Position numbers and translations under genes: made by a program
Notes under the pieces: model-generated
What the model saw: the letters and a program-made list of their open reading frames with translations, nothing else
Told to the model about the DNA's origin: nothing
Database searches by the model: none
Assembly: GCA_016649905.1 (NCBI GenBank)
Contig: JAENWU010000011.1
Span: 1 to 39,754, forward strand
Length of the DNA stretch: 39,754 nucleotides
Direction: 5' to 3'
From: Thermoleophilia bacterium
Lineage (GTDB): Bacteria; Actinomycetota; Thermoleophilia; Solirubrobacterales; 70-9
Part shown: positions 15,318 through 31,449 of the stretch, in pieces
Position numbering within the stretch: position 1 is the stretch's first letter
How the letters are laid out: each line of letters opens with the position of its first letter

Positions 15318-16916
15318 CTAGCGAGCTGCCTGTTCGAACGTCTGCCGGTAGAGCGTTGAGGCACCGGGCCCGTAGATTGATTTCTGAGGGCCCTGTTGGG
15401 TGCAAGCGGGCGCAGGCACGGTGGCGGTGCCTTCTTGGCCAGCGAAGGCAAATTCCTTTAGCCGTTTGAAGAAGTCTTCGGCTTCTTTGAGGTTGATCGA
15501 CGCAGGGGTCTCTCCGGCTGGGATTTCGCGGCCGGGAGGACGGTTGGAGCGTTCCTGGAAGGCAGGGTTGGTGGGAGTGGTCGGATCAAGGGTGCCAGCG
15601 GCTCCAGAGGTGCACTGGCGGACGTCGAAGCCCGGCAGGCCCTGAATCAGATTTTCGGCCCACTTGGGCGGGCTGTAGGCGCTGTTGCGATTGATCGTCA
15701 GTCGTTTGCTGCTTGAGGCGACCGTTTCGGGGTTGAGCGGACCGAGCACCCGCAAGAACTGAGGATGGATTCCGCCTTTGAGTTCTTCCGTCAGCTTCAC
15801 GTTGGACGAAGCGGCGATGTTGGCGAAGAAGGACGTGACCTCGTGCTTGTAGAGGTTGAGGCCCGTGAATAGAGGGTTGAGGTTGCGCAGGAACGGATCA
15901 AGAGCGCGCAAGAGCGGTGGGAAATCGTCGCGGAAGAGCTTGCGCCCAGCCGCGAAACCGGAGGGCGCCCGTTCGATCACCGGCCCGAGACCTTCGAAGA
16001 AGCCTTTCGCTTCCGGCGCCAGGTTGGCGAAGGCGACCAGGGTTGGCGACAGCTCTTCCGCGGCCGGCACCAGCTGGCGCATCAGCGGATCGGTGTTCTC
16101 GGCGAAGGTCTTGAGGCGGCTGACGGTCAGCCTCGACTCGTCGAGGAAGGTCGGGAAGGCGCGGAACAGCGCTTCGATGTCCTGGTCGCGACGCGCCGTG
16201 GTCTGGAAGACAGCATTGGAGCTCTGGATCAGGTCGGCGACCTCGCCGTTGCGGCCGCGCAGAGCGGTGAAGGTCTTGGCGCCGTTGCTGAAGAGCTGGC
16301 CGACCGCGAGCCGCTGGGTGTCGAGGGTGCGGAAGAGCCGGTCGAGTTCGGTGAAGGTCGGTTCGAACTGGCCGAGCGCATAGGAGAGGCTCTGGCCCTG
16401 GCCGTTGATCGCGACCGCGGCTTCCTGCATCCAGGCCTGGAAGGCGGCACGGGTTTGGGGATCGAAGGTGCGGAAGATCTCATCGAGCTGGACCGATTCG
16501 GCGATGTTGGCCTCAGGCAAGGTGTCGCCATCGGCCATCTCCGGCGCCTCGCTCGAGCCAGGCGTCAGTTCGATGTAGGTCTCACCGAGCAGGGTCTTGG
16601 TGCGGAGGATCGCCCGCGTCGACTCAGGCAGCGGCCCGTACTTGTCTTCGATGTCGACGGTGGCCAGCGCCTGCCTCCCGTTCGGGGCCAGGGCAATGCT
16701 CTGGACTTTGCCGACGTTGACGCCGGAGATGCGGACGTCCGACTGTTCGGCCAGCTGCGTCGCCTCGTTGAAGGGGATCTTCACCTCGTAAGGCTTTGCC
16801 TTGAACGGGGTCGGGCCGCCGAAGGTGACCCAGAGGAAGAGCAGGATCCCGAAGCAGGACAGCGCGAAGCCGGCGATGACCAGGAGCTGCGTGGTGCTGG
16901 GGGCGCGCTTGCTCAT
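15318..16916 (-). CDS. MCE-family protein, sixth gene of MCE operon
   Basis: A 532-residue MlaD/MCE protein. The N-terminal membrane helix spans about 9-31; the MCE domain (about 40-120) includes DVRISGVNVGKVQSI and GETYIELTPG; a long helical region (150-400) starts with VQLDEIFRTFDPQTRAAF. In related systems MCE subunits assemble into tubes that carry hydrophobic molecules across the envelope. Two C-terminal Cys (RQCTSG, PACTQQ) recur in all six paralogues. The ATG overlaps the previous stop by four bases. No terminator hairpin with a T-run is visible after the stop. Confidence 0.9.
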   Translation of the reverse strand: MSKRAPSTTQLLVIAGFALSCFGILLFLWVTFGGPTPFKAKPYEVKIPFNEATQLAEQSDVRISGVNVGKVQSIALAPNGRQALATVDIEDKYGPLPESTRAILRTKTLLGETYIELTPGSSEAPEMADGDTLPEANIAESVQLDEIFRTFDPQTRAAFQAWMQEAAVAINGQGQSLSYALGQFEPTFTELDRLFRTLDTQRLAVGQLFSNGAKTFTALRGRNGEVADLIQSSNAVFQTTARRDQDIEALFRAFPTFLDESRLTVSRLKTFAENTDPLMRQLVPAAEELSPTLVAFANLAPEAKGFFEGLGPVIERAPSGFAAGRKLFRDDFPPLLRALDPFLRNLNPLFTGLNLYKHEVTSFFANIAASSNVKLTEELKGGIHPQFLRVLGPLNPETVASSSKRLTINRNSAYSPPKWAENLIQGLPGFDVRQCTSGAAGTLDPTTPTNPAFQERSNRPPGREIPAGETPASINLKEAEDFFKRLKEFAFAGQEGTATVPAPACTQQGPQKSIYGPGASTLYRQTFEQAAR

Positions 16917-18319
16917 TTCGTTTTGTATTCGCAGTGGCCAGTTTCTGACTTACCAGGAGCGACGGGGATTTCGTCGGGAATCGGGATGCCAGCCGTTTGG
17001 AGGAGCGTTTTGATGAACGGGTGGGTCGGCGCAACCGTGCCGTAGGCAAAATCGGACCCGGTGCAGGTGATCAGGATCAGGCCGCGGAGCATCGGCCCAC
17101 CCGCGTCTTTCAAGTTGAAGGTCGCGTTGAAGTTGTGGTTGAGCCAGGGGAGATAGAAGAGGAAGCTTTCCTTCCCCTTCGGCTTGTAGGCGAGCTCGTT
17201 GAGGAAGCTGTTGAATCCACCGAGCCCGTTTCCGAAGTTTTGGACCGTCTTCTTCAGCGGCTGTGAGCCTTCGTTGGCGTGGGTGAGCACGGGCCGGATC
17301 TGGCGGGTGAAGGGCCGGATCTGGTCGCGGATCGGCGCGGTCGTTTCGGAGAAGAGCTTTTCGGTCGCCTTGAAGGCCGGCTGCAGCGCCTGCGCCTGCG
17401 GGATCAGGCTGGTCAGGGCCGGATAGGCGGCCTGCGAGAACTTGGTCGAGCTGGCGAGGCCGCTCTTCGCCGCGTCGAGCGTCGCCGGGAACTCGACCAG
17501 TGCTTCCTGGATCGACTGCTGCTGGTTGGCGAAGTTGCCGAGCGCCGCGTCGGAGGAGGTGACGAAGCGCTTGATCTCGGCGTCGTGGCGGCCGAGCTCG
17601 GTGGTCAGGGAACCGAAGTTGTGGATCACGTTCGCGAGCGCGACGTGGCGAGCAGCGACCGCTTTGTTCAGCTTGGCGACATAGTGGACGAAGGGCTGGA
17701 AGCGCCGGAAGGCGTTGCCGAGCTGTTTGCCGCGGCCACCGATCCCCTGGGCGCCGCCGGCGACCAGCAGCTGGATGTACTGACGGGTGTCGGCGTCGAG
17801 GGTGCCGAGGAAGGCGTCGAGGTTGGTATTCGGTTCGGTCTGGGCGAGGGTGAAGTGGGCGCCGTCTTCGATCGGCTCATCGCCGCTGCCGGGTTCGACC
17901 TCGACGATCATGTCGTTGAGGCCGGTTTTCGGCCGCAACAGGAAGCTCGCGTTGGGGTGGATCAGCTCCATGTATTTGGGCTGGATGTCCATCCCGACCA
18001 CGGCGTGGCCGTCTTCGAGATCGACCGAGGTGACCTTGCCGATTTCGATCCCGGCGACGTCGACCGACTGGCCCTGGCCCGGCGTCACCGCCTGAGCGGT
18101 CGCGAACTCGGCCGAGATGTGGTCGAATTCTTCGCCGACAACCGGCAGCCAGGCCGGCAGCGAAGCCTTTTGCTGGGTGAAGATCCCCAGCATCATCGCG
18201 ATGCCGGCGATTGCGAGGACGAAGATCGCGATCGTGTCTTTTCGGTGGCCTCGGGACTGGCGCGAGAGCCAGGCACGGAAGTGCCGCCAGCGGCTGACTT
18301 CGGCGGGTCTCTGGCTCAT
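16913..18319 (-). CDS. MCE-family protein, fifth gene of MCE operon
   Basis: A 468-residue MCE protein with a basic N-terminus, a membrane helix (about 29-47), an MCE domain (about 65-150: VDVAGIEIGKVTSV, then DMIVEVEPGSG) and a helical tail domain from TNLDAFLGTLDADTRQYI. It is longer before the domain than its neighbours, with an extra segment PAWLPVVGEEFDHISAEF after the helix. The C-terminal Cys pair is ITCTGS and GHCEYK. It is joined to both neighbours by ATGA overlaps, which implies balanced translation of all subunits of one complex. The substrate is unknown. Confidence 0.9.
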   Translation of the reverse strand: MSQRPAEVSRWRHFRAWLSRQSRGHRKDTIAIFVLAIAGIAMMLGIFTQQKASLPAWLPVVGEEFDHISAEFATAQAVTPGQGQSVDVAGIEIGKVTSVDLEDGHAVVGMDIQPKYMELIHPNASFLLRPKTGLNDMIVEVEPGSGDEPIEDGAHFTLAQTEPNTNLDAFLGTLDADTRQYIQLLVAGGAQGIGGRGKQLGNAFRRFQPFVHYVAKLNKAVAARHVALANVIHNFGSLTTELGRHDAEIKRFVTSSDAALGNFANQQQSIQEALVEFPATLDAAKSGLASSTKFSQAAYPALTSLIPQAQALQPAFKATEKLFSETTAPIRDQIRPFTRQIRPVLTHANEGSQPLKKTVQNFGNGLGGFNSFLNELAYKPKGKESFLFYLPWLNHNFNATFNLKDAGGPMLRGLILITCTGSDFAYGTVAPTHPFIKTLLQTAGIPIPDEIPVAPGKSETGHCEYKTK

Positions 18320-19839
18320 GGATTCACCCCCGCTAGCGACGGGCTGGCCGTGCCGATCTGGGCGAGCGGCGAGCCGTTGAGATCGGGGACTGGGTTGTTG
18401 TCGCAGCGGACGTCAGGCTTCAACGGCGGCATGCCGCCCACCTGCGGCTGGACGCCGATTGGGTCCGCGATGCTGCGCGAGTAGACGATCTGATCGCTGA
18501 CGGTGTCGAGGTTGCCCAGTGGGTTTGCCCCTCCCAGGAGGAGGTTGCCGCCACCAGCCTGCGCACGTACGTAAGGCCCGTTGCCGTCGTAGTTCTGGGC
18601 GGCACCGGCGAAGTTGGTGAGGGTGTAGAGGAACTCGCGATAGTTGGGCCCGCCGGTGCTGAACTGGTCGTTGATCGTCTGGTTCGCCGTCGGCACCAGG
18701 ACCTGCGTCGTGCACAGGCTGAGTCGGTTGAGCTGCGGCAGGGCCGACGAGAGACCGGCCTGAGCCGCGCCGGCAAGGCCCGGCGTCGATTCCTGCAGCA
18801 GCTTGGCGACGCCTCCGGCCTCCTTGCCGGAGAGCAACGGCCGGGTCTGCTCCAGCCACGGTTTCGAGGCGCTGATCAGCCCCGGCAGCTCGGCCACCGC
18901 CGGCGTCAGCACGATCGCGTAGGTGCGCAACGGTGGCAGGGTGCGGTTGAGTGCGACAAGCGAGGTATTGGCCACCTTCAGCGTCGGGGCAAGCAGGTTG
19001 ACCGTCGTCGAAAGGTTGGCCGACTGCGTCGCCAGAGCACCGGTGAAGACGTTGAAGTTGTCGATCAGGCCCTGCAGGTCGGAGCGGCGGCTAGCGAAGG
19101 ATCCGAAGGTGCGGCCGGCGCCAGCGACCAGGCGCGAGAGGTCACGCTGTTCGGTGCCGAGCAGCGCGTTGGTGACCTGGGCGCTGTAGCGGCCGGCGTC
19201 GGCGCCGTATTTGAAGGCGCCGTTGAGCGCTTCGGCGCCAGTCTTGCCTTTGACCTCCGGCAGCTGGGTCGCGTCTTCGGCGGCGTTCGGTTTGTGCGTG
19301 TAGGCCGTGCCGATCCCCTCGAGCAGGCGACTGAGGTCAGCGCGAACCGGGGATTGCAGCGCGGAGAGGACTTCGTCGAGCTGGACCGCGGTCGAGGTGC
19401 GGCTGACCGGAATCGTGCCGCCGCTGTCCATCTCCGGCGCGCTCGGGCTGCCGGGGTCGAGTTCGACGAAGAAGTTACCCTCGAGGAAGATCCGTGGGCG
19501 GATTGCGGCGAAAGCGTCGTCGTGGATCGGTCGGCCAGCGCCGTCGACGGTGAAGGTGACCTTGGTCGCGTCGCCGTCGCGCTCGGAGGAGATCACTTTG
19601 CCGACTTCGACACCGGCGATCCTGACCGGCGAGTTTTTGGCGATATTGGCCGAGTTGGCGAACGTCGCGTGGACCTCGTAGCCGTAACTGGTGAAGGGCA
19701 CGTGTTTGGTGAAGGCCAGGTACGGGCCGATCGTGAAGATGAGAATGAAGACGATCGCGATCGCGACGTTGCTGGGACGCCAGCTGAATCGACCCCTCCT
19801 CGCGCTCTGGCGCGTGTCGCGCTCGGGCATGCGGCTCAT
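18316..19839 (-). CDS. MCE-family protein, fourth gene of MCE operon
   Basis: A 507-residue MCE protein: N-terminal arginine-rich stretch, membrane helix VAIAIVFILIFTIGPYLAF (about 25-43), MCE domain (about 50-135: PVRIAGVEVGKV, GNFFVELDPGSP), and a helical domain from AVQLDEVLSALQSPVRADL to about 340. A C-terminal region contains the paired Cys (LSLCTTQ, VRCDNN). Start at ATG 19837-19839, overlapping the preceding stop. The PTFT-like core motifs of mycobacterial MceA-F are not obvious enough to assign a letter. Confidence 0.9.
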   Translation of the reverse strand: MSRMPERDTRQSARRGRFSWRPSNVAIAIVFILIFTIGPYLAFTKHVPFTSYGYEVHATFANSANIAKNSPVRIAGVEVGKVISSERDGDATKVTFTVDGAGRPIHDDAFAAIRPRIFLEGNFFVELDPGSPSAPEMDSGGTIPVSRTSTAVQLDEVLSALQSPVRADLSRLLEGIGTAYTHKPNAAEDATQLPEVKGKTGAEALNGAFKYGADAGRYSAQVTNALLGTEQRDLSRLVAGAGRTFGSFASRRSDLQGLIDNFNVFTGALATQSANLSTTVNLLAPTLKVANTSLVALNRTLPPLRTYAIVLTPAVAELPGLISASKPWLEQTRPLLSGKEAGGVAKLLQESTPGLAGAAQAGLSSALPQLNRLSLCTTQVLVPTANQTINDQFSTGGPNYREFLYTLTNFAGAAQNYDGNGPYVRAQAGGGNLLLGGANPLGNLDTVSDQIVYSRSIADPIGVQPQVGGMPPLKPDVRCDNNPVPDLNGSPLAQIGTASPSLAGVNP

Positions 19840-21266
19840 TTGGTCACCTGCCCGCGCGTCGTCGTACCGCGAAGCTTCGGAGCGTTCCCGATAACCGTCT
19901 TACCGACCACGTACTTCTCATTGCCGGCTTCGCACACGCCATCCTGCCCAGGTGCCCCCGTGCGCGGGAACGGGTTGAAGTGGAGATGGTTTTTCTTCGC
20001 CTGTTCGGGGTCCGCCGAACCGCCGTTCGCGGGTGCCGACGACGGGGTGGTCTCCGCATTGGGGCCGAGCGGAGGCTCGAAGCTGATGAAGTTGAGCCAC
20101 TTGCCCTGGCTGTTGCCCTGACTGTTCGTCCTGGCGAGGTTTTCGAAGAGGATGGTGACGTAGTTGCAGTTGGTCTGGGCCGGAACGATGTAACTCAGCG
20201 ACGGCTTGAGGATTCGGTTGGTGTCGATCAGCAGGTCGAGCCCGTTGAAGACCCCGGTCGCTTCCTGGAAATCGACCAGCGCTTCCGCCGTCGGCTGCAG
20301 CTGATTGTTGAGAACCGGCGAAGCGTTGAGGACGGGGACGCCGGCATGGAGCGCTTCGGCGATCACCGGCGACGTTTCACCGAGCGCTTTCGCTCCTGGC
20401 TGTAGGGCGGCGAAGAAGCGCTCGGAGCTCTTGAGGAACGGATTCAGCGCCGGCAGGTCCGCGTTGACGGTGTCGAGGGTCGGTGGGCTCTTCTCGATCG
20501 TTTCCTGGATGTAGGGGCGGGAGACGCGGGCGAAGGCGCCGAAGGTCTGGTCGAGGGCGACGAACATGCTGGCCTGCTGCTCGGCAACCGGGGCGACCGT
20601 GGCCGAGAGCGCCTCGAGCGCGCGCCAGAAGCCGGCGAAGTCGGTGCTGGGGGCGACGATCGTCCTCAGTACCGGCTGGCCGTTGACGACGAGGCGCCGC
20701 AGGGCGCCGATCGCTTCGTTCAGCTGCGGCCCGCGGCCGGCGAGGGCGTTGCCGAAGCCGGCGAGGTTTTGACGGATCGCCTGGCGGGTCGGCTTGTCGA
20801 ACATGTCGAAGAACTCGTCGATGTCGACCGGTTCGGGCGTGGCCGCCGCGACCGGGATCGTGTCGCCGGCCTCGAAGCCCTTCGAGGAATCGCCGGGGGT
20901 GACCTGCAGGAACTTGAGCCCCAGTGCGGACTTGGGCCGGATCGTGATCGTCGAGTCGACCGGCAGCGGTTCGGCGCTCTGGTCGAGGCTGAGGTCGAGT
21001 TCGGCGGCGACCTCGCCGTTCTCGAGCTGGACCGGGACGACCGACTTGACGATGCCGACGCGGACGCCGCCGATCCGGATCTCGTTGCCTTTGACCAGCG
21101 CGTCGGCGTTCGGCACCCGCGCCTTGAGGTTGTAGGTCGAGACGAACGGCAGCCCGTTGTTGGCGTTGTAGGCGAGGAAGACGGCGACGATCACGACCAG
21201 CACGGTCACCGCCCCGACCAGGATCGGGTTGCTCGCCAGCCCCTGAAGTCCGCCTTTGTTTCTCAT
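19836..21266 (-). CDS. MCE-family protein, third gene of MCE operon
   Basis: A 476-residue MCE protein with a membrane helix ILVGAVTVLVVIVAVFLAY (about 15-33), an MCE domain (about 42-130: EIRIGGVRVGIVKSV, LKFLQVTPGDSS), and a helical domain beginning PVDIDEFFDMFDKPTRQAI. The C-terminal tail carries TNCNYV and DGVCEA plus a low-complexity stretch. The ATG overlaps the upstream stop by four bases. A position in the inner or cytoplasmic membrane with the helical barrel outside is expected from the family. Confidence 0.9.
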   Translation of the reverse strand: MRNKGGLQGLASNPILVGAVTVLVVIVAVFLAYNANNGLPFVSTYNLKARVPNADALVKGNEIRIGGVRVGIVKSVVPVQLENGEVAAELDLSLDQSAEPLPVDSTITIRPKSALGLKFLQVTPGDSSKGFEAGDTIPVAAATPEPVDIDEFFDMFDKPTRQAIRQNLAGFGNALAGRGPQLNEAIGALRRLVVNGQPVLRTIVAPSTDFAGFWRALEALSATVAPVAEQQASMFVALDQTFGAFARVSRPYIQETIEKSPPTLDTVNADLPALNPFLKSSERFFAALQPGAKALGETSPVIAEALHAGVPVLNASPVLNNQLQPTAEALVDFQEATGVFNGLDLLIDTNRILKPSLSYIVPAQTNCNYVTILFENLARTNSQGNSQGKWLNFISFEPPLGPNAETTPSSAPANGGSADPEQAKKNHLHFNPFPRTGAPGQDGVCEAGNEKYVVGKTVIGNAPKLRGTTTRGQVTK

Positions 21267-22768
21267 GGCCCGAGGAGGTAGTCGAGGAGCGGTTCGGTGC
21301 CGGCGGTCTGCGAGGCGCTGCCGATATTCGGTTCGGCTTCGGTGGCGCCTGCCTGGCCGAGGCCGGTGGTGGGGCCACGGGCCTCGGGGGGCGACGAAGT
21401 GCCGCCCGTCTGTTCATCGAGCTGCTCTTGGAGGAGCCGGAACAGGCTCGCAGCGCTGAATTCGGCGGATTCGCCAGCGTTTTCGCCGTTGAAGTTCGAG
21501 TTACAACCGGACCCTCCCTCCCGATTGGCTTCGTATTCGACGCAGTTCGTCAGGGACACATAGGTGCGACCGAAATGGCCGTACTGATCGAAGCCGTTCG
21601 TCGCCAGCGACGTGTTGTAGATCAGTTCGACCAGCGAGTCCCAGCCGCCCGTCTTCCTGAGATTGGTCGTCAGGCCGGCAAGTTCAGCGGTCGGCTTCAC
21701 CCCCGACTTCGAGAGTTCGGTGGTCTTGCGAACGATCGGATCGGCCTCCCGGAAGCTCGGGCCCGACGCTTCACCCGCCGCCCCCAGGCTCTTCAGCGCC
21801 ACGGTCGTCGCCTGCGAGAACGGGGTCAGCGTGCGCGTCGCGTCGGTCAGCGCCGGACCGGCTTCGTCGAGGCTTTCGAAGACCGGGGTAGCCGCGTCGG
21901 AGAAGCCCTGCAGATTGGTCATCGTCGTGCGGAACTCGCGCAGGAAGGTGGGGAATTTCTGCAACGACTCTTCCAGTTGCGCGCCACGTTCAGAGCTGGC
22001 CTCCGCGGCGGCGCCGGCATTGGAGATGAAGCCGGCGACATGGCGGCGCTCGCGCGCCAGCGGGCCGAGGATCGCATCGGAGTCGCTGGCCAGCTGCGCC
22101 AGTTCGTCGCGCTGGTCGGAGAGGATCCCGAAGAGACGGTCGACGTCGCGCAGGACCGGGTTGGCGCGCTTGACCAGGACTTCGAGGTCGCCGCCGCGGC
22201 CGGCGAAGCCGGCGCCGAGTTCGTTGAAGATCAGCCGGAAGCGCTGCGCGTAGGGCAGCGTCTGGATGTCGTTGATCAGGTCGGGGTCGACGCTGGCGCC
22301 GCTGTTGCCCAGCGGCAGCAGATACTGGCCGGCGCCCGCTTCCCCGTCTTCGATCTTCTTCAGCGGCGGCGGTGGCGGCGAGCCCGGCGCCCGCGGCAGG
22401 GTCGGCCGGCAGTCGATGAACTTCTCGCCGATCAGCGACTGCGGCCGGATCTGGCAGGTCGCGTCCTGGCGGAAGTCCTGGAAGCCGGGGTCGGTGATTT
22501 CCATCTCGATGATCGCCTTGCCGGGGACCGAGACCGGCTCGCCGTCGCGGTAGGCGACGACGTCGCCGGGCATGGTCACGTCGACCGCCTTGATTTCGCC
22601 GACGTTGGCGCCAGCGACCCGCACCTGCTCGCCGTTGACCATGAAGGCGCCGTTGTCAAAGATCGCGCGGACGACGTAGCCGTTGTTCGAGCCGCCGCCG
22701 GAAACCAGCAGCACGACCACGACGACGGCCGCGACGAGCAGCAGCACGGGTATCAGTCGCCTAATCAT
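21263..22768 (-). CDS. MCE-family protein, second gene of MCE operon
   Basis: A 501-residue MCE protein from the ATG at 22766-22768; a longer upstream frame is antisense noise, and this ATG gives the ATGA overlap used at every junction. Membrane helix LIPVLLLVAAVVVVVLLVSG (about 5-24); MCE domain (about 33-135: QVRVAGANVGEIKAV), which is unusual in carrying its own Cys pair (ATCQIRPQ, IDCRPT) and a proline-rich insertion PPPPPLKK; helical domain about 160-390. The C-terminal tail has Cys in LTNCVEY and SGCNSN. The most divergent of the six. Confidence 0.88.
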   Translation of the reverse strand: MIRRLIPVLLLVAAVVVVVLLVSGGGSNNGYVVRAIFDNGAFMVNGEQVRVAGANVGEIKAVDVTMPGDVVAYRDGEPVSVPGKAIIEMEITDPGFQDFRQDATCQIRPQSLIGEKFIDCRPTLPRAPGSPPPPPLKKIEDGEAGAGQYLLPLGNSGASVDPDLINDIQTLPYAQRFRLIFNELGAGFAGRGGDLEVLVKRANPVLRDVDRLFGILSDQRDELAQLASDSDAILGPLARERRHVAGFISNAGAAAEASSERGAQLEESLQKFPTFLREFRTTMTNLQGFSDAATPVFESLDEAGPALTDATRTLTPFSQATTVALKSLGAAGEASGPSFREADPIVRKTTELSKSGVKPTAELAGLTTNLRKTGGWDSLVELIYNTSLATNGFDQYGHFGRTYVSLTNCVEYEANREGGSGCNSNFNGENAGESAEFSAASLFRLLQEQLDEQTGGTSSPPEARGPTTGLGQAGATEAEPNIGSASQTAGTEPLLDYLLGP

Positions 22769-24165
22769 GGTCCCGGGGGCACGTCGGTCGGGTCGCATTC
22801 CGAGGGGCTGACGGCGCTGCCGGCCTGCGGCGGGTTGACGTAGGGGCTGGAGCCGTCGGTCGCGTTCTGAGTCGCGCCACCTGGGCACGGTTTCGTAACC
22901 GGGGCTGACGGGCCGAAGACGTTGAACTGTTCACTCTTCGAGATCGGGTTCAACGCCGCGCCTTCGTATTCGAACAGATTCAGGCCGGATGGCGAGACTC
23001 GTACGTAGTGTCCGTTGGCGTCGTAGTAGCCCGCTGCCTGCCCCAGCTTTCCGACCGCACTGAACAGGTCGGTCGTGTACGAGCGGGCGAAGTTGAGGTT
23101 CGGCTGGAAGGCGGTGATCGCCGCTTCTGAATGCGGGAACGCACTCGAAGCGCGCGACTGCACGGTCGGCAGCGCCGCCAGCAGCTCGGCGGCGTCGTTG
23201 GCTGCCCCCGGCCGGCTGACCGTGAGCCGCAGGTTGCGCGTGAAGGGAATGAATTTCGACAGCACCGGCCGCAGTTCGGCAAGGAACGGGGCCAGGTTCT
23301 TGGTCGCCGGCTTCGCCGTTTCGACCAGCGGGTCGAGGTCGTCGAGCGCCGCCCGTAGGTTGACGAAGGTCGTGTTCGACTGCCGCATCACCGGCGGCAG
23401 GCGCTGCAGGGTCTGGTCGAAGGCGACGGTCTGTGAAGCGATCGCGTCAAAGGCGGTGTTGGCGTTGGAGATCGCGCTCGAGAGCTGTTCGCCGCGGTCG
23501 GCGACGGTCGTCGCCAGGTCAGCCGAGCTGACGATGAAGCGTTCGAGCAGGCGCTGATCGGCGTTGAGTTCGCCGACGAAGGCGCCGGTCCGGTTCAGCG
23601 CCGGGCCGAAGAACTTGTAGGACTCGTTGGCGTCTTCGCCGCGGCCCGAGTAGATCGAGGCGTTGCCCTTGATGAAGTCACTGAGGCCCTTGCGCACCGA
23701 GGGCGGGAAGGTGTTGAAGAACTGGTCGATGTCGATCGGCGTCGTGGTCGAGGCGAGCCCGAGCTCAGCGTCGTCATCGAGCGCCGGGTTGCTGTTCGGC
23801 CCCGGGCTGATCGAAACGTAGTGGTTGGCGACGCCGGAGAGCGAGGTGGCGCGGATCACCGCGGTCGTCCCCTCGTGCAACTCCTGGTCGACTTCGACGT
23901 GGACCGCGGCGAGGTTGTCGTCGGTCAGGTCGATGCTGTCGACCGAGCCGACCGGCGAGCCGCCGACGAGGACCTGGTTGTCGGGCACGAGCTGGCCCGC
24001 GTTCTGGAAAACGAGGGTGTACTTGTGGCCGCCACCGCCGCTGAAGAAGACGATCGCCAGCACGATCACCGCCGCTGCCAGGGCCACGATCACCGCAATT
24101 CGGGCGGGGGTCATCCCCCGGCTCGGAGCCGAGCTTTTCTCCTCGCCTAAGGAATTGGAAGCCAC
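22765..24165 (-). CDS. MCE-family protein, first gene of MCE operon
   Basis: A 466-residue MCE protein heading the six-gene operon. Membrane helix IAVIVALAAAVIVLAIVFF (about 23-41), MCE domain (about 47-130: QVLVGGSPVGSVDSI, NHYVSISPGPN), helical domain starting PIDIDQFFNTFPPSVRKGL, and a Pro/Ser-rich tail with KPCPGG and PSECDP. The GTG at 24163-24165 is formal; the ATG at codon 18 is an alternative with a nearby GGGGG. Unlike mycobacterial mce operons, no YrbE-type permease gene precedes it; instead a 191-base divergent region leads to a secreted-protein gene. Confidence 0.88.
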   Translation of the reverse strand: MASNSLGEEKSSAPSRGMTPARIAVIVALAAAVIVLAIVFFSGGGGHKYTLVFQNAGQLVPDNQVLVGGSPVGSVDSIDLTDDNLAAVHVEVDQELHEGTTAVIRATSLSGVANHYVSISPGPNSNPALDDDAELGLASTTTPIDIDQFFNTFPPSVRKGLSDFIKGNASIYSGRGEDANESYKFFGPALNRTGAFVGELNADQRLLERFIVSSADLATTVADRGEQLSSAISNANTAFDAIASQTVAFDQTLQRLPPVMRQSNTTFVNLRAALDDLDPLVETAKPATKNLAPFLAELRPVLSKFIPFTRNLRLTVSRPGAANDAAELLAALPTVQSRASSAFPHSEAAITAFQPNLNFARSYTTDLFSAVGKLGQAAGYYDANGHYVRVSPSGLNLFEYEGAALNPISKSEQFNVFGPSAPVTKPCPGGATQNATDGSSPYVNPPQAGSAVSPSECDPTDVPPGP

Positions 24166-24356: not shown

Positions 24357-25136
24357 ATGCGCAAACGTCCAACTCTGATCGTTGGCACGGTAGTGGCAGC
24401 GGTCGCCGCGATTGCCGCTTCGGTCGCAGTAGCGGGAGCCCCCGTCACTGGCACCGACGGAAACTCGCAGTCGATCGACGTCAAGATCGCCCCAAAGAAG
24501 CTCTCGAAAACGACGCTGACCCCGGCGACGCTCGAAGTCACGACCAAAGTGTCGACCAGCAACCCCACCGGCGTCCCCAGCCCGGCCGTCCGCGTCACCG
24601 TCGACTTCGACAAGAACGCGAAGCTCTTCACCAAGGGGATACCGACCTGCACCGCCGCACAGCTGCAGAACACCTCGACCGAAGTCGCCGAACAGGCCTG
24701 TGGCAAAGCCAAAATCGGCAGCGGTCACGCAGCTGCGCTGCTTCCCGTCGGGACCAAAATCTTCCCGGTCGAACAGGTCGTCACGGCCTACAACGGCGCG
24801 CCACAGGGCGGCAAGTCGACCGTGCTCCTGCACACCTACGGCACCACCCCGATCCAGACGACCCTGATCCTCAACGGCGTCGTCTCGAACTACAACAAGG
24901 AAGGCTACGGCCCGCGCCTCGACGTCGAAGTGCCGCTGATCGCCGGCGGCGCCGGTGCGCTGCTCGAATTCAACGTCAAGATCGACAAAAAATTCAGCTA
25001 CAAAGGCGAGAAACGCAGCTTCATCAGCGCCAAATGCCCCAAAAACAAGAAGTTGAAGGCCCGCGGAGCGTTCACTTTCAAAGACGGCGAAACGATCACC
25101 GCCTACTCGAAGCAGTCCTGCCAGCAGAAGAAATAG
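24357..25136 (+). CDS. Secreted four-cysteine protein, paralogue 1 (MCE-linked family)
   Basis: A 259-residue exported protein of a family I do not recognise from the literature. Signal peptide: LIVGTVVAAVAAIAASVAVA (about 7-26). The mature protein is beta-strand-rich and basic. Four Cys sit in two fixed pairs: C-x16-C (PTCTAAQL to EQACGKAK) and C-x27-C (AKCPKNKK to KQSCQQKK). Other shared marks are FNG-like YNGAP, the GGAGALL segment and FTFKDGE. Good ribosome binding site AGGAG eight bases before the ATG. It is divergent from the MCE operon. Three paralogues lie at 29157-31449 beside an RND transporter. A role as an extracytoplasmic lipid-carrier or envelope partner is inference from context. 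Confidence 0.85.
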   Translation: MRKRPTLIVGTVVAAVAAIAASVAVAGAPVTGTDGNSQSIDVKIAPKKLSKTTLTPATLEVTTKVSTSNPTGVPSPAVRVTVDFDKNAKLFTKGIPTCTAAQLQNTSTEVAEQACGKAKIGSGHAAALLPVGTKIFPVEQVVTAYNGAPQGGKSTVLLHTYGTTPIQTTLILNGVVSNYNKEGYGPRLDVEVPLIAGGAGALLEFNVKIDKKFSYKGEKRSFISAKCPKNKKLKARGAFTFKDGETITAYSKQSCQQKK

Positions 25137-25793: not shown

Positions 25794-28700
25794 TCAGACG
25801 TTGAACCTGGGGAGCACCCGCGCCAATGGGCGCGGGAGCCACCAGACCCGGTCGCCGATCAGCAGCATCAGCGCCGGCAGCAGGACGATTCGCACCACGG
25901 TGGCGTCGAGGATCACCGCGACGGTCAGGCCGACTCCGAGTTGGCTGACCGTCGCGATCGGCGCGCCGGCGAAGACGATGAAGACGGCGAGCATGATCGC
26001 GGCGGCGCCGGTGATCACCCGGGCGGTCTTTTCGAGGCCGAACTCGATCGCGGCGGCGTTGTCGCCGTGGCGGTCGTAGTGCTCGCGCATGCGGCTGAGC
26101 AGGAAGACCGCATAGTCGATCGATAAGCCGAAGACGACGCCGAAAATCATCACCGCTCCGACCGCGTCGACGTAGTTGTGGCCGCCCAGGGGCAGGTCTT
26201 CGGGCACCTCGAAGAGCAGGGTGAGGACGCCGAAGGCGACGGCCACCGTCGCCAGGTTGAGGCCGACCGCGATCGCCGCCAGCGGGATCGCCCGCAGGAC
26301 CAGGACGAGGACCAGGAAGGTGACCAGGGTGATCGCCGCGACCACCAGCGGGATCCGCGCCTGGGTGACGTGGCTGTAGTCGTTCAGCTGGGCGGCACCG
26401 CCGGCGACCCCGGTCTGCAGGCCGGCATCGTCCGCCAGCCTCGCCGCTTCTTCGTCGAGGCGCTTGTTGAGCGCGATCGAGCCGGGGGTGTTGAAGCTGT
26501 AGTCGGAGACGACCAGCATCGAAGCGGCCTGGCCGCCGCGGCGGAGGTCGATCGCGCTGGCCGCCGCCTCGCGCGCACGCGGCGGCGACCCGTCCAGCGC
26601 CGAGAGCACGAAGTAGCCGGAGTTGAAGAGGTTCGGCGAGGCCGCGGCGACGCGGCGCGCCTGGTGGCGGATCCGCGCCCTGCCCTCGATCACCCGGACG
26701 CTGGCTTCGTCGAGCCCCGATTCCAGCGGCGCCGCTTCCTCGAACCCTTCGGCGAGGCCGGCTCCCAGCGCCTCGGCGCCGCCGCCGAGCTGGTCGATGC
26801 CACCGACCAGCGCCGTGGCGCCACCGCTGAGCCGGTCAAGCCCGTCGCCGAGGGTCTTGGCGGCGCCGGCGAGGCGTTCGGAGCCATCGGCGAGGCGGGT
26901 CCCCGCCGCTTTGATCTTGTAAAGGCCGTCGGTAAGCTGCGCCGCGCCGTTCGCCAGCTTCCTCAGGTTCACGATCGAGCCCTGCAGCCAATCGGTGACC
27001 CGCTTGGCGTCGTCCAGATCTTCGGCCAGCCGAGCTTGGAGACTGGTCAGTTCGGTCGGGAGTCCTACGTATTCGGGAGCGTAGGGTGCTCCGGTGACCG
27101 GATTGGTACCGCTCACAGCGGCGAGGGCGGCGCGGACGGCTTCCAGCGTCGCCAGATAGTTGGGGTCGCTCTGACCGCTGGTCATTCCTTCCAACGACGC
27201 CAACGCGGCTTTCAGCTGTTGTTCGGCCGAACTTGCCGGCCCCAGCAACCGCGGAACGGTGATTTCACCCAAGCTCTCGAGGGAATGTTCAACCTCAAAG
27301 GCGTGATTGAGTCCGTTGTGCCGCAGGTTCGGCCCGCCGACCCCTTGGATCCCGAACTTGAGGTTGAGCGCCCCCAGCGCGGCTTCTTCCTGCGCTTCGG
27401 CCAGTTTCCGCGAGCCGTCGGCGAAGCGGTCGAGGGCGCCGACCGCGCGCTGGCTGCCGGCGGTGGCGCGGCCGAGGCCGACCGCGATCAGCTGCGCCCC
27501 CTCGCCGGCGCGATCGGAGCCGAGTGCCAGCAGCCCGGCCCCGTCGCTGGCTTCGGCGATCCCTTCCCGCAGCTGGCCGACGCCGCCGGCCGCGGTCCGC
27601 AGGCTGTGGCCGAGCCGGCCGAGCTGTTTGACCGGGCCGATGTTGCCACCCGATGAGAGCACGGCGTTGCCGAGTTTCTGCAACGGCTTGACCCGTTCGG
27701 CGACTTCGCCGGGGCCGATCACGGCCTGCACGCCCGGCAGCTTGGCCAGTTCGCTCTGGAAGCGATCGAGCGCGGCGAGGCTCTTGGCGTCGGTGATCGG
27801 GCCGTCTTCGTTGACGGCGACGATCTGGAACGGCGCGTCCCAGCCGGGCCCGAACGAGTCGTCGATCAGTTCGGCGTCCTGGCGGGCGGGGGCGTCCTCG
27901 GAGAGCTGCTCGGGGCTCGGCGGGCCGGTCTTGAGGGCGATCGCGGGGGCGGCGAGGAGCAGCAGGACGGCGCCGATCACGACGGCCACCGGTGCCGGGC
28001 GCTTCAGCGCCGCGTTGACCGTGCGCATCAGCCGCGAGCTGCTCTCGCTCGGCGCCGCGCCAACCCGCCAGCGGTCGACGTTGGGCCCGATCAGGGTCAG
28101 CAGCGCCGGGCCGACGATCGTCGCCACGGCGACGCTCAGCAGCACCACCATCATCACCGTCCCCGCCAGCGAGGCCAGCAGCGAGCCGGGCAGGATGAAC
28201 AGCGAGACCAGCATCGAGAGCAGCAGCGTGCTGCCGGCGAAGACCACCGTGCGGCCGGCGCTGCGGCGGGTCGTCGCGGCGGCGTCGGCGGGCGTCGCGC
28301 CGGCGGCCAACTCCTCGCGGAAACGGGAGACCATCAGCAGCGCGTAGTCGACCCCCAGCGCTAACCCCATCATCGTGCAGACGGTTAGCGCGAAGGCGTC
28401 GATGTCGAACCAGCCGGTGAAGAAGTAGAGGATCCCGCGCGAGGCGACGACCGTGATCGCGCCGAAGGCGAGCGGGATCGCGGCGGCGATTGGCGAGCGG
28501 AAGACCAGCAGCAGGACGATCAGCAGGAACGGCAACGCGATCAGCTCGCCGCGCTCACTGGCGGCGATCGACTCGTCCTGGATCGCCCGCGAGAGGCTGG
28601 CGTATCCCGTCTGGGTCGCCGTCACCGGCGGTCTGATCTGCCGCTCGAGGACATCGTTCAGCCGCGGCACGGTGTCGTTGACCGCGGTCCTGGTGTCGAC

Positions 28701-29114
28701 GTGGAAGTCGGCGAGGATCAGCGCCCGGTCGGGCCGCGGGCGCAGCCGCTGCACCGCGCCGCGGTCCCAGGGCGAGAGCGTCCGCACCCGCGGGTCCAGT
28801 CGCAGCGCCCGGACCAGCCGTGGGCCCTGGCGGTCGATCGCCGCTGCCGGCCCCTCGATCAGGATCGCGAACGGGGCGGTGGCGCCGAAGTGATCGCGCA
28901 ACATCGCGTTGGCGCGCGAGGACGGCGTGCCGGGAACATCGAGCGTGGTCGGGTCCAGTCTGTCCTCGACGTTGGTGCCGATCACCCCGAGGGTGACGAG
29001 CAGAAGCGCCGCGACGGCCAAGACCGTGCGGGGATGTCGCAACATTGGCGACCGGCGTCGGGTCGGCTCCGAGCTCGCGGAGCCCGACCGTACCCTGCTC
29101 CTCCTGCTTCCCAC
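25794..29114 (-). CDS. MmpL-type RND transporter with a very long extracytoplasmic loop
   Basis: A membrane protein of about 1106 residues with the RND/MMPL architecture. TM1 is at about 25-47, the first outside loop at 48-190, and TM2-6 at about 190-345 with GLALGVDYALLMVSRFREEL (proton-relay helix). TM7 is at about 375-393, a loop of about 525 residues follows, and TM8-12 are at about 920-1090 with GVVFGLSIDYAVFLLSRMRE. The second loop is rich in Ala/Gly/Leu heptad-like repeats (GLDRLSGGATALVGGIDQLG), as in MmpL and YhgE-like proteins. Family members export lipids or envelope precursors using the proton gradient. The GTG start is uncertain; the ATG at codon 24 is an alternative. Divergent by 42 bases from three secreted paralogues. 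Confidence 0.92.
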   Translation of the reverse strand: MGSRRSRVRSGSASSEPTRRRSPMLRHPRTVLAVAALLLVTLGVIGTNVEDRLDPTTLDVPGTPSSRANAMLRDHFGATAPFAILIEGPAAAIDRQGPRLVRALRLDPRVRTLSPWDRGAVQRLRPRPDRALILADFHVDTRTAVNDTVPRLNDVLERQIRPPVTATQTGYASLSRAIQDESIAASERGELIALPFLLIVLLLVFRSPIAAAIPLAFGAITVVASRGILYFFTGWFDIDAFALTVCTMMGLALGVDYALLMVSRFREELAAGATPADAAATTRRSAGRTVVFAGSTLLLSMLVSLFILPGSLLASLAGTVMMVVLLSVAVATIVGPALLTLIGPNVDRWRVGAAPSESSSRLMRTVNAALKRPAPVAVVIGAVLLLLAAPAIALKTGPPSPEQLSEDAPARQDAELIDDSFGPGWDAPFQIVAVNEDGPITDAKSLAALDRFQSELAKLPGVQAVIGPGEVAERVKPLQKLGNAVLSSGGNIGPVKQLGRLGHSLRTAAGGVGQLREGIAEASDGAGLLALGSDRAGEGAQLIAVGLGRATAGSQRAVGALDRFADGSRKLAEAQEEAALGALNLKFGIQGVGGPNLRHNGLNHAFEVEHSLESLGEITVPRLLGPASSAEQQLKAALASLEGMTSGQSDPNYLATLEAVRAALAAVSGTNPVTGAPYAPEYVGLPTELTSLQARLAEDLDDAKRVTDWLQGSIVNLRKLANGAAQLTDGLYKIKAAGTRLADGSERLAGAAKTLGDGLDRLSGGATALVGGIDQLGGGAEALGAGLAEGFEEAAPLESGLDEASVRVIEGRARIRHQARRVAAASPNLFNSGYFVLSALDGSPPRAREAAASAIDLRRGGQAASMLVVSDYSFNTPGSIALNKRLDEEAARLADDAGLQTGVAGGAAQLNDYSHVTQARIPLVVAAITLVTFLVLVLVLRAIPLAAIAVGLNLATVAVAFGVLTLLFEVPEDLPLGGHNYVDAVGAVMIFGVVFGLSIDYAVFLLSRMREHYDRHGDNAAAIEFGLEKTARVITGAAAIMLAVFIVFAGAPIATVSQLGVGLTVAVILDATVVRIVLLPALMLLIGDRVWWLPRPLARVLPRFNV

Positions 29115-29156
29115 CCGTGGTAGTTTGGCGGTCAGGGGAACGGGAGGAGCGAACGA

Positions 29157-29921
29157 ATGCGGAAGAGTCTGTTAAGGACGTTCGCGATCGGGGCAGTGTT
29201 CTTGCTCGTTGGTGCCAGCTCGGCACTGGCGCTGCGGCTGCAGATCGCAAATATTGTCATCGTCACCGACGGCGGCTTTACGCCGACGACGCTGCCCAAG
29301 CACGAGTTCGCGCCGATCAAGCTGCACGGCTACGGGAAAATCTCGACGGCCGACGGTGGCCTGCCGCCGATCCTCAAACAGATCATCCTCTGGTTCGACA
29401 AGCACGGCGAAGTCGAGACCCGCGGGCTGCCGATCTGCACGCCGGCGAAACTGGCCGCGACGACGACGGAGGTGGCACGCAAGCTCTGTCCGGGCGCGAT
29501 CGTCGGCACCGGCTTCGGCAAAGCCGTCGTCAACTTCCCCGAACAGCCGCCGATCCCCGCCTCCTCGCCGATCACGATCTTCAACGGGGCCGAGAAGAAC
29601 GGCAACCCGACCGTGCTCGCCCACGCTCACCTGACCGTGCCGGCGCCGACGACCTTCGTCGTCCCGATCGAGATCCAGCGCGTGAACAACGGTCGCTACG
29701 GTTTCAAGACCGTGGCTGAAATTCCCAAGATCGCCGGCGGCGCCGGCACGCCGATTTACGGCCGGCTGAAGATCGGGCGCGAATGGAACTACAAAGGGCA
29801 GAGGCTCAGCTACGTCAACGCCAGCTGCCCTGACGGCCGCCTCCAGGCCAAAGGCGAATTCACGTTCAAAGACGGCACGGCGCTGAACGGGACCTTCCTC
29901 AAGCCCTGCACGGGCAAATGA
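29157..29921 (+). CDS. Secreted four-cysteine protein, paralogue 2 (RND-linked)
   Basis: A 254-residue exported protein. Signal peptide: FAIGAVFLLVGASSALA (about 9-25). It keeps the family signature: RGLPICTPAKL to RKLCPGAIVGTG (C-x16-C), SPITIFNG, VPIEIQRV, GGAGTPIYG, and ASCPDGRL to LKPC (C-x26-C). Strong ribosome binding site GGGAGGAG before the ATG. First of three genes in a tight rightward operon divergent from the RND transporter. The mature domain of about 228 residues appears to be one beta-rich module with two probable disulfides. Function unknown. Confidence 0.87.
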   Translation: MRKSLLRTFAIGAVFLLVGASSALALRLQIANIVIVTDGGFTPTTLPKHEFAPIKLHGYGKISTADGGLPPILKQIILWFDKHGEVETRGLPICTPAKLAATTTEVARKLCPGAIVGTGFGKAVVNFPEQPPIPASSPITIFNGAEKNGNPTVLAHAHLTVPAPTTFVVPIEIQRVNNGRYGFKTVAEIPKIAGGAGTPIYGRLKIGREWNYKGQRLSYVNASCPDGRLQAKGEFTFKDGTALNGTFLKPCTGK

Positions 29922-30688
29922 GCGGCCGGCGGTTGCGCTGGACCGCCTCGATCGTCCTCGGTCTCAGCCTGCTGGGCGGCGCCAGCGCCTACGCGCTGAC
30001 GGCTGAAATCGGCAACACCGTGGTCAGCTCGACGGCGACGATGCTGCCGCGCGAGCTGCCGGCCCGGGGCGGCGCCCCGATCTCGCTCAGCAGCATCACC
30101 AGGGTCAAGACCAAGGACAACTCGCCGCCCGGGGTCCTCGGCAGCATCGACCTGATGATCGACAAGCACGGCTACCTCGAAACGAAGGGGGTGCCGGTGT
30201 GCACCGCCGCCAAGCTCGAACGGACGACGCCGGCCCAGGCGCGCAAACGCTGCGCCGGGGCTCTGGTCGGCACGGGGACCGCCAAGGCCGAGATCAACCT
30301 GCCGGGCCAGCCACGCATGCAGATGACCTCGCCAATCTCCTTCTTCAACGGGCCGCAGCTGAAGGGCCAACCGAGCCTGATCGCCCACGCCTATGAGACC
30401 GTGCCGGCGAAGAAGACGCTGCTGGTCCCGATCGCGATCGAAAAGGTGAACAAGGGGCGCTACGGCTACCAGGTCCAGGTCGAGATTCCGGAGATCGCCG
30501 GCGGTTACGGCGCGCCCACCCTGGCCGAAGCGACGGTGGGCAGGACCTTCGACCGGGGCGGCAAGAAGGTCGGCTACCTCAACGCCTATTGCGCCGGCGG
30601 CAGGCTGCAGGTGCAGGGCGACATCAACTTCACCAACGGCGACTTCTTCCCCGCGACGCTCACCTCGCCGTGCCACGTGCCCGGCTGA
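29918..30688 (+). CDS. Secreted four-cysteine protein, paralogue 3 (RND-linked)
   Basis: A 256-residue exported protein overlapping the previous stop by ATGA. Signal peptide: ASIVLGLSLLGGASAYA (about 10-26). Signature residues: KGVPVCTAAKL to RKRCAGALVGTG (C-x16-C), SPISFFNGPQ, VPIAIEKVNKGRYGYQVQVE, IAGGYGAP, and AYCAGGRL to LTSPC (C-x26-C). It is closest in pattern to paralogue 2, which suggests tandem duplication. Coupled translation with its neighbours implies that the three products are needed together. Confidence 0.87.
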   Translation: MSGRRLRWTASIVLGLSLLGGASAYALTAEIGNTVVSSTATMLPRELPARGGAPISLSSITRVKTKDNSPPGVLGSIDLMIDKHGYLETKGVPVCTAAKLERTTPAQARKRCAGALVGTGTAKAEINLPGQPRMQMTSPISFFNGPQLKGQPSLIAHAYETVPAKKTLLVPIAIEKVNKGRYGYQVQVEIPEIAGGYGAPTLAEATVGRTFDRGGKKVGYLNAYCAGGRLQVQGDINFTNGDFFPATLTSPCHVPG

Positions 30689-31449
30689 GACGCGCCGCGC
30701 TGCTGGCCTGCGCCTTGGCGGCACTCGTGGTGGCGGCCGCGGCGAGCGGCCAGGGTGCGCTGGTCGAAGTCAACAACCTGATCCTGCGGGCCGATGGCAG
30801 CTTCCAGCCACGCCAGCTGCAGCGCAACCGCTTCACGCCGATCGAGTTCCAGGGGCACGCTGCGATCGCCTCCAAAGATGGCAGCCGGCCGGTCGCGCTG
30901 CGCCAGGCGATCGTCAACTTCGACCACGACGGCCGGCTCAGCGTGCGCGGGCTGCCGACCTGCCCGCCCGAGCGGATCGCCAATGCCAGTACCGAAGAAG
31001 CACGCAAGCTCTGCGCCGGAGCGATCGTCGGCAGTGGCCGGATCGAGGCGGTGATCTCGCTCTCCAGTGGACTGGTCGAGGCCAGCTCACCGTTGACGAT
31101 CTTCAACGGGCCGCCGCTGAACGGCCGCCTGACCGCCGTTCTCCACGCCCGCACCACCGTGCCCGGCACCCAGACCTTCGCGATCCTGGTTCCGATCGAA
31201 CGGCTCCGCGGCGAATACCGCTACCGGGCCACCCTGGACCTGCCGCTGATCGCCGCCGGGCTCGGTTCGCTCACCTTCGTCGAAGTCGAGCTCGGCCGGG
31301 ACTACCGCTTCGAAGGCAAGTCCCGCAGCTACGTCTCTGCCCGCTGTGGCGACAGCATCCTGCGCACCCGCGGCCGTTTCACCTTCGCAGACGGCACCGT
31401 GATCGAAGGCTCCGTCGAAAAGTTCTGCCGGGCGCTGCCGCCGCGCTGA
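30670..31449 (+). CDS. Secreted four-cysteine protein, paralogue 4 (RND-linked)
   Basis: A 259-residue exported protein. The GTG at 30670-30672 was chosen because it begins a clean signal peptide (RRAALLACALAALVVAAAAS) and overlaps the previous gene by 19 bases; the longer frame upstream is antisense-like noise. Signature: RGLPTCPPERI to RKLCAGAIVGSG (C-x16-C), SPLTIFNGPPLNG, VPIERLRGEYRYR, IAAGLGSL, and ARCGDSIL to EKFC (C-x26-C). Ends 22 bases before tRNA-Lys with no terminator between. Confidence 0.85.
   Translation: MPRARLRRAALLACALAALVVAAAASGQGALVEVNNLILRADGSFQPRQLQRNRFTPIEFQGHAAIASKDGSRPVALRQAIVNFDHDGRLSVRGLPTCPPERIANASTEEARKLCAGAIVGSGRIEAVISLSSGLVEASSPLTIFNGPPLNGRLTAVLHARTTVPGTQTFAILVPIERLRGEYRYRATLDLPLIAAGLGSLTFVEVELGRDYRFEGKSRSYVSARCGDSILRTRGRFTFADGTVIEGSVEKFCRALPPR

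What the first reader, a model, noticed from the sequence alone, without database searches (positions are those of the whole stretch)
15318..31449. MCE operon and MmpL pump, each divergent from members of one secreted protein family
Seen: a six-gene MCE operon runs left from a divergent region that runs right into a secreted four-cysteine protein. Some 5 kb away an MmpL-type RND gene runs left from a 42-base gap that runs right into three tandem paralogues of that same protein. Known: MCE proteins and MmpL proteins both move lipids or other hydrophobic molecules. Inference: the secreted family supplies periplasm/cell-wall carriers or adaptors for a combined uptake and export system for an envelope lipid. 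I know of no described system with this makeup.
Basis: partly seen in the sequence, partly recalled or inferred. Interest (0 to 1): 0.82.

Follow-up and report, generated by a model that had tools for sequence, protein, structure and literature searches.

The report
Soil-bacterium lipid transporter joined to pump
In a poorly studied order of soil actinobacteria, genes for a tube-like lipid transporter (MCE) are regularly encoded together with an MmpL-type pump and, in one family, with a new secreted protein that has four fixed cysteines, which suggests a combined lipid-handling machine in bacteria thought to lack an outer membrane.

Summary
Six tandem MCE genes are divergent from a secreted four-cysteine protein (4C-A). 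An MmpL gene is divergent, across 42 bp, from three tandem 4C paralogues. The layout recurs in 11 of 11 genus loci where MCE genes could be read, with an invariant 10-bp block in the MmpL/4C-B gap in 11 of 11 sequences.

The link reaches further. This MCE operon lacks its permease genes. Across the order, the operon YrbE-YrbE-ATPase carries a different MmpL subfamily downstream in 43 of 44 assessable genomes. That MmpL was not found at 16 YrbE loci of the same order without an ATPase gene directly downstream, nor at 12 loci elsewhere in the phylum. In outgroup families the six MCE genes sit in that same operon. In the window's family they have moved away, and 4C genes follow MCE6 in 14 of 15 loci with at least 1 kb of room.

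4C has no Pfam or NCBIfam match over a cut-off and a confidently predicted beta fold without a clear solved relative. Most extra paralogues in the genus look scattered.

Best reading: a composite MCE-MmpL lipid transporter with a new wall-side accessory family. Substrate, direction and 4C function are inferred. My searches found no description in print.

The parts
22765..24165 (-). MCE1 (466 aa)
   Evidence: PF02470 and Mce4_CUP1 over cut-off
21263..22888 (-). MCE2 (541 aa as listed from the first GTG; the true start is probably further in, as the listed frame overlaps MCE1 by 124 bp)
   Evidence: PF02470 match in the genome search; TIGR00996 E 3e-16, below cut-off
19836..21266 (-). MCE3 (476 aa)
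   Evidence: PF02470; TIGR00996 E 3e-26, below cut-off
18316..19839 (-). MCE4 (507 aa)
   Evidence: PF02470; TIGR00996 E 3e-28, below cut-off
16913..18319 (-). MCE5 (468 aa)
   Evidence: PF02470; TIGR00996 E 2e-22, below cut-off
15318..16916 (-). MCE6 (532 aa)
   Evidence: PF02470, the best match of the genome
24166..24356 (.). Divergent control region MCE1 / 4C-A, 191 bp
   Evidence: Gap of 183-197 bp with conserved blocks in 10 of 10 relatives
24357..25136 (+). 4C-A, secreted four-cysteine protein (259 aa)
   Evidence: Paralogue of 4C-B to D; no Pfam or NCBIfam match over a cut-off
25794..29114 (-). MmpL-type RND transporter (1106 aa), window type
   Evidence: PF03176 E 5e-64; xxxLxxG repeat model just over its cut-off
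29115..29156 (.). 42-bp divergent control region MmpL / 4C-B, with TGGTAGTTTG at 29118-29127
   Evidence: Gap 42-47 bp by script in 10 of 11 and block invariant in 11 of 11 sequences; only match in the window within one mismatch
29157..29921 (+). 4C-B (254 aa)
   Evidence: structure model mean pLDDT 92.5
29918..30688 (+). 4C-C (256 aa)
30685..31449 (+). 4C-D (254 aa, TTG start assumed)

Best explanation
The window holds the MCE half of a composite envelope lipid transporter of the order Solirubrobacterales, plus a genus-level MmpL/4C module. The other half lies on contig C129 of the same genome: YrbEa-YrbEb-ATPase-MmpL-thioredoxin-like. Shown by gene order: YrbE, ATPase, MCE and MmpL are encoded together across the order, and 4C is the gene that usually follows MCE6 in the window's family. 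Inferred: the six MCE proteins form a hydrophobic tube on the YrbE-ATPase transporter, as in mycobacterial Mce1; MmpL, driven by the ion gradient, acts on the same lipid pool at the outer face of the membrane and loads or unloads the tube, so that an ABC engine and an RND engine together set the flow of a hydrophobic compound through the cell wall; the secreted beta protein 4C, probably braced by disulphides, sits at the wall-side end as cap, anchor or hand-over partner. In this genus its copies multiplied and came under divergent control regions shared with MCE1 and with a second MmpL.
For: MmpL downstream of the YrbE-YrbE-ATPase(-MCE1-6) operon in 43 of 44 assessable genomes of the order, 41 of them within 650 bp; not found at 16 YrbE loci of the order without an ATPase gene directly downstream and at 12 loci of other phylum members. 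Full order YrbE-YrbE-ATPase-MCE1-6-MmpL, usually with the thioredoxin-like gene, in f2, f3 and f4. 4C behind MCE6 on the same strand in 14 of 15 f1 loci outside g1/g9 with at least 1 kb of room, and behind single MCE genes in two f2 genomes (positions). Genus locus conserved in 11 of 11, divergent gaps conserved. MmpL and MCE1 on one strand about 60 bp apart in G026. Four cysteines invariant in 22 of 22 diverse members. CARDB Ig-like domain fused to 4C homologues in g11.
Against: G058 has YrbE-ATPase-MCE without MmpL. A second MCE locus in G014 and the MCE locus of G016 have no 4C behind MCE6. In f2-f4, 15 examined MCE loci have no 4C, so 4C is not needed for the MCE-MmpL core. Most extra 4C paralogues in the genus are away from MCE and MmpL. 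No substrate, complex, localisation or transcript data; the 4C fold has no clear relative. Operons are inferred from strand and spacing in draft genomes.
Confidence: 0.6

Rival explanations
1. 4C proteins are soluble lipid carriers that work like LppX/LprG or LolA: they pick up lipid released by MmpL and deliver it to, or take it from, the MCE tube.
For: Secreted beta proteins encoded beside a lipid exporter and a lipid tube; several paralogues could serve several lipids.
Confidence: 0.2
2. Window-type MmpL and 4C-B to D form a separate export or wall-assembly module that merely stays next to MCE in the genus.
For: MmpL and 4C-B share a 42-bp control region. The MmpL/4C pairing recurs without MCE on C72 of this genome, and a second pair lies on C91 of G019. 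Genus 4C copies are mostly unlinked to MCE.
Against: 4C follows MCE6 in the other genera of the family. MmpL lies on the MCE strand about 60 bp from MCE1 in G026 and convergent beside MCE6 in G016. The operon-type MmpL shows an MCE-MmpL tie independently.
Confidence: 0.25
3. 4C proteins are cell-wall structural or adhesin-like proteins whose genes are co-regulated with envelope transporters, without a part in transport.
For: Beta-sandwich-like fold neighbours, adhesins and integrin domains among them; CARDB fusions in g11; scattered paralogues.
Against: Position directly behind MCE6 across ten f1 genera argues for a tie to MCE. Fold neighbours are weak.
Confidence: 0.2
4. Chance proximity of unrelated genes.
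For: The genome has about ten MmpL genes (21 domain matches) and nine 4C genes.
Against: Conservation in 11 of 11 genus loci and order-wide MCE-permease/MmpL linkage with internal controls.
Confidence: 0.01

Closest known systems
Mycobacterial Mce1/Mce4 transporters (YrbEAB, MceA-F, MceG)
   Same: Two YrbE genes, six different MCE genes and an ATPase; MCE genes tandem with short overlaps
   Different: MmpL, and usually a thioredoxin-like gene, in the operon; ATPase encoded with YrbE; MCE genes split off in the window's family; a different accessory family (4C) behind MCE6
Mas/Mam proteins encoded behind mycobacterial mce operons (PMC1810536, passages)
   Same: Extracytoplasmic accessory proteins encoded behind the last MCE gene, often in more than one copy
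   Different: No detectable relation to small proteins behind MCE6 of other phylum members (hhalign probability 0.2%); four invariant cysteines
MmpL transporters of mycobacteria (MmpL3, MmpL4/5)
   Same: PF03176; best NCBIfam match is MmpL3, far below its cut-off
   Different: Genetically tied to an MCE transporter; no MmpS gene was recognised beside it in the window
LppX/LprG and LolA lipid carriers (recalled)
   Same: Secreted beta proteins that work beside lipid exporters (recalled)
   Different: No Pfam match; fold relation not shown

Membership tests
Actinobacterial MCE (mce-type) ABC transporter | Six tandem genes with an MlaD/MCE domain | tested here: met
   6 of 6 over the PF02470 cut-off
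Actinobacterial MCE (mce-type) ABC transporter | Two YrbE permease genes at the head of the operon | tested here: not met
   None beside the MCE genes; two pairs on other contigs. In other families of the order the pair does head the operon. So this is a split variant
Actinobacterial MCE (mce-type) ABC transporter | Cognate ATPase in the genome | tested here: met
   ABC_tran protein directly behind YrbE on C129
Actinobacterial MCE (mce-type) ABC transporter | Hetero-hexameric tube and lipid transport | not testable with these tools
   No complex prediction or assay
MmpL (HAE3-type RND) transporters | MMPL domain, two copies per protein | tested here: met
   PF03176 E 5e-64, two stretches
MmpL4/5-like pumps with coiled-coil tube | Long coiled-coil hairpin in a periplasmic loop | tested here: inconclusive
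   Two long helices (534-642, 685-776) only in a model of mean pLDDT 48; xxxLxxG repeat just over its cut-off
Mas/Mam proteins | Encoded directly behind the last MCE gene on the same strand | tested here: met
   14 of 15 f1 loci outside g1/g9; in the window itself 4C-A is instead divergent from MCE1
Mas/Mam proteins | Sequence relation to the Mas domain | tested here: inconclusive
   hhalign probability 0.2%, but the comparison set was picked by position only and is not certified as Mas
LppX/LprG or LolA carriers | Sequence match to the family | tested here: not met
   No such match in Pfam at E up to 1 for the four 4C proteins
LppX/LprG or LolA carriers | Half-open beta-barrel fold with a lipid cavity | tested here: inconclusive

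The most novel reading that the evidence does not exclude
A two-engine trans-wall lipid exchanger: in Solirubrobacterales one MCE tube is served both by an ATP-driven YrbE-ATPase permease and by a gradient-driven MmpL pump encoded in the same operon. In the window's family the tube is crowned by a secreted, disulphide-braced protein family (4C), and in the window's genus a second MmpL and a set of 4C paralogues give the tube interchangeable ends or substrates.
Probability: 0.35. Interest if true: 0.85.

Novelty: new variant of a known kind. Interest (0 to 1): 0.72.

Why it matters
MCE homologues in monoderm actinobacteria, Solirubrobacterales among them, are noted in print as of unknown function (PMC10665443, passage seen). 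A conserved operon that places an RND lipid pump with the MCE ABC transporter gives a concrete handle on that question: it suggests that MCE tubes work in a wall without an outer membrane and that ABC and RND lipid transport can be parts of one machine. The 4C family is a new marker, found here only within the order, and a candidate for a wall-side partner of MCE tubes. If a cultured member of the order carries the operon, gene removals and lipid profiling can test this.

Tried and rejected
Chance: rejected by recurrence in the genus and by the order-wide linkage with internal controls.

4C as a member of a described family: no Pfam or NCBIfam match over a cut-off; PDB sequences best E 0.14; no Foldseek match at E up to 0.001 in PDB or viral models. 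Lipid-carrier folds (LppX, LolA) do not appear in the rows shown, which proves nothing.

MmpL structure: model of mean pLDDT 48, not used for a fold search.

Disulphide chemistry between the operon's thioredoxin-like protein and the cysteines of 4C: in 7 of 7 aligned thioredoxin-like sequences only one cysteine remains at the usual CXXC place, so an ordinary disulphide reductase is unlikely. Its family match is itself below cut-offs (AhpC-TSA; ResA).

A gene of about 800 aa before MCE1 in some relatives: listed by my first gene caller, but Pfam found nothing in five such frames; probably spurious frames in GC-rich DNA. From then on the caller scored codon usage.

Rows left out before counts., ATPase-bearing loci with under 500 bp beyond the core: L137, L222, L207, L212, L213 (L205 is the same locus as L210). 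G003, G017, G027 and G055 gave no assessable ATPase-bearing locus; L208 (G048) has ATPase-MCE-MmpL-thioredoxin-like but no YrbE in the piece fetched and is not counted. Loci without an ATPase directly downstream and with under 500 bp: L134, L145, L211, L217, L218, L219, L223, L228 (L206 is the same locus as L229). The 16 controls include L186 and L215, which have an ATPase gene upstream of YrbE. L175 among the other phylum members was left out (340 bp). In two of the 43 positives MmpL is 1.6 kb (G056) and 4.0 kb (G012) away; distances are between profile matches, not gene ends.
most loci were fetched because searches already showed 4C near MCE; three (G021, G028, G034) had no 4C hit and still gave one. 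The one negative of 15 is a second MCE locus of G014. With a 700-bp limit the count is 14 of 18 loci (L154, L129 of G016, L234 of G029 and L236 of G030 lacking; for G029 and G030 4C lies near the start of another contig, which fits a contig break but does not prove it). L125, L232, L233 and L235 had too little room (L233 does show a 4C match at its edge).
Alignment A4 used 41 of the 48 4C stretches plus the four of the window; seven from L106, L107 and L108 (partial, broken or simply unused) were dropped.
Full report
WHAT IS THERE. The window is contig C33 of a 2.9-Mb draft genome. Six MCE genes run from 24165 to 15318 on the minus strand and are the only MlaD-domain matches in the genome as held (6 of 6 over the cut-off). 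Divergent from MCE1 is 4C-A (24357-25136). Then come a Phd/YefM-type antitoxin gene (25466-25780) and an MmpL gene (29114 to 25794). Across a 42-bp gap follow 4C-B, 4C-C and 4C-D, which overlap by 4 bp each. The four 4C proteins are paralogues with invariant cysteines.

OWNER. A scan of genome contigs returned 14 named loci with titles such as Solirubrobacterales bacterium 70-9 and other Solirubrobacterales, Actinomycetota or Actinobacteria MAGs. The NCBI lineage of 70-9 is Actinomycetota, Thermoleophilia, Solirubrobacterales. That these contigs are the same records as the unnamed genus genomes is my inference from equal contig lengths. Below, f1-f4 and g1-g28 are the tool's labels; the window is in g1 of f1.

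THE LOCUS IN THE GENUS. In 11 of 11 g1 loci with readable MCE genes, 4C-A is divergent from MCE1 at a short distance and MmpL lies beyond it. The twelfth genome (G008) has a 4.3-kb fragment with matches in the order 4C, MmpL, 4C. The MCE1/4C-A gap is 183-197 bp with conserved blocks in 10 of 10 relatives. The MmpL/4C-B gap is 42-47 bp by script in 10 of 11 sequences; for the eleventh the script took a wrong start and the alignment shows the same one. An identical TGGTAGTTTG sits there in 11 of 11, and the block has no other match within one mismatch in the window. In G026 (g9) MmpL and MCE1 lie on one strand about 60 bp apart. Shared control of these gene pairs is likely but is an inference.

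THE PERMEASE HAS ITS OWN MMPL. Two YrbE pairs lie on contigs C129 and C142. On C129 the order is YrbEa-YrbEb-ATPase-MmpL (815 aa)-thioredoxin-like. This MmpL is of another subfamily than the window's: with each as query, neither hit the other's group at E 1e-5, and they fall in separate clades of a FastTree tree.

ORDER-WIDE TEST. YrbE loci of the 61-genome set (54 of 61 with YrbE) were scanned with profiles built from the window, C129 and relatives. Of 44 genomes with an ATPase gene directly behind YrbE and at least 500 bp of contig beyond the core, 43 have MmpL downstream on the same strand, 41 within 650 bp: f1 28 of 28, f2 6 of 7, f3 6 of 6, f4 3 of 3; the exception is G058. YrbE loci of the order without an ATPase gene directly downstream: 0 of 16. 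Loci of seven other phylum members: 0 of 12 (all). In f4 (G039, G042, G045), f3 (G038, G041, G047, G053) and f2 (G043, G046, G049, G054) the order is YrbE-YrbE-ATPase-MCE1-6-MmpL, usually with the thioredoxin-like gene behind. In the 28 f1 genomes and in G040, G044, G056 and G057 no MCE gene lies between, and MmpL follows the ATPase. The simplest history is one ancestral operon, split later (inference).

WHERE 4C COMES FROM. In f1 genera other than g1 and g9, one to four 4C genes follow MCE6 on the same strand in 14 of 15 loci with at least 1 kb of room; the fifteenth is a second MCE locus of G014 (choice of loci and lower limits under Tried and rejected). In f2, 4C lies behind a single MCE gene in G043 and, by position, in G040. 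The 15 other MCE loci examined in f2-f4 have none. A profile of 22 diverse members keeps four cysteines and one proline invariant. It finds the family in 17 of 119 class genomes and 4 of 149 phylum genomes, in each case only within the order. So 4C was probably an MCE-operon gene before it spread. In g1 it is expanded: 5 to 22 matches per genome, 121 in 12 genomes, about 46 at the core locus. By hand from the cut lists, at least 5 of the other 75 lie within about 6 kb of an MCE or MmpL gene. This speaks against a strict MCE/MmpL role for all paralogues. An MmpL/4C pair without MCE lies on C72 of the window's genome, and a second pair on C91 of G019.

MOST LIKELY WORKING. Mycobacterial Mce1 is a tube of six MCE proteins on YrbE1AB and MceG with a hydrophobic tunnel (PMC9882608, passages). 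MmpL5 was reported as a trimer with a coiled-coil tube (PMC12501195, start of abstract). Gene order here says that in Solirubrobacterales the two kinds of machine are encoded as one. That they share a substrate, which way it moves, and that 4C sits at the outer end are inferences. Opposite directions would make a lipid-exchange or recycling cycle; equal directions a two-stage importer or exporter. The data do not decide.

LITERATURE. Casali and Riley describe mas genes behind mce operons and no Mce homologues in Rubrobacter xylanophilus; 'mmpL' does not occur in its main text (PMC1810536, passages). A neighbourhood study treated Proteobacteria in the passages seen (PMC5561183). In M. smegmatis the pulled-down Mce1 complex held no Mam proteins (PMC10517005, passages). 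The Veillonella paper notes MlaDE homologues of unknown function in monoderm Actinobacteria, mainly Solirubrobacterales and two other orders (PMC10665443, passage). Searches combining MCE with MmpL, Solirubrobacterales, Thermoleophilia, operon or RND terms listed no paper whose title or abstract start describes an MCE-MmpL operon; I opened only the papers named here. The library lacks most subscription papers and bioRxiv holdings.

LIMITS. Draft genomes; gene starts by rule; operons inferred from strand and spacing; profiles made from the system itself; no experiment.

Noticed in passing
25466-25780 (-): Phd/YefM-type antitoxin gene (PF02604 over cut-off) between 4C-A and MmpL; no toxin gene was recognised beside it.
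   Followed up: no
L050 (contig C142 of the same genome), 522-3449: A second YrbE pair without an ATPase gene directly behind, divergent from a PucR-like regulator. The genome holds two permease pairs but one set of six MCE genes.
   Followed up: partly
12335-13477 (+): PucR-type regulator (PF13556 over cut-off) beyond the end of the MCE operon; PucR-like genes also lie behind MCE6 in L056 and L066.
   Followed up: no
L049:5138-5791 (-) and relatives: Membrane-anchored thioredoxin-like protein behind the operon MmpL in most loci; in 7 of 7 aligned sequences only one cysteine is left at the usual CXXC place.
   Followed up: partly
L049:4503-5138 (-): Gene with a B3/4 domain (PF03483 over cut-off) directly behind the thioredoxin-like gene; genes of about 215-225 aa stand in the same place in several relatives.
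   Followed up: no
L051:11165-14066 (-) and L065:11171-15749 (+): Window-type MmpL paralogue, a small secreted protein (u185, no Pfam match) and a 4C paralogue in a row.
   Followed up: partly
L052:7561-10029: A 4C paralogue divergent, within about 50 bp, from a serine/threonine protein kinase gene.
   Followed up: no
L127, L128, L230: 4C homologues with a C-terminal CARDB Ig-like domain behind MCE6 in genus g11.
   Followed up: partly
L066:18-814 (-), also L108: 4C-B lies in two overlapping frames in G002, a broken gene or an assembly error.
   Followed up: no
31560-33551 (-): TPR protein and TatC/TatA-like genes stand next to 4C-D here and in several genus relatives; probably a housekeeping neighbour.
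   Followed up: no
G040 and G058 (family f2): 74 and 44 MlaD-domain matches and 20 and 15 MlaE matches, far more than the 6 MlaD matches typical of the window's genus.
   Followed up: no
L230:6117-8000 (+), L231:4250-6001 (+): A third kind of MmpL (30-34% identity to the window's over part of its length) downstream of MCE6 and 4C on the same strand in g11.
   Followed up: partly
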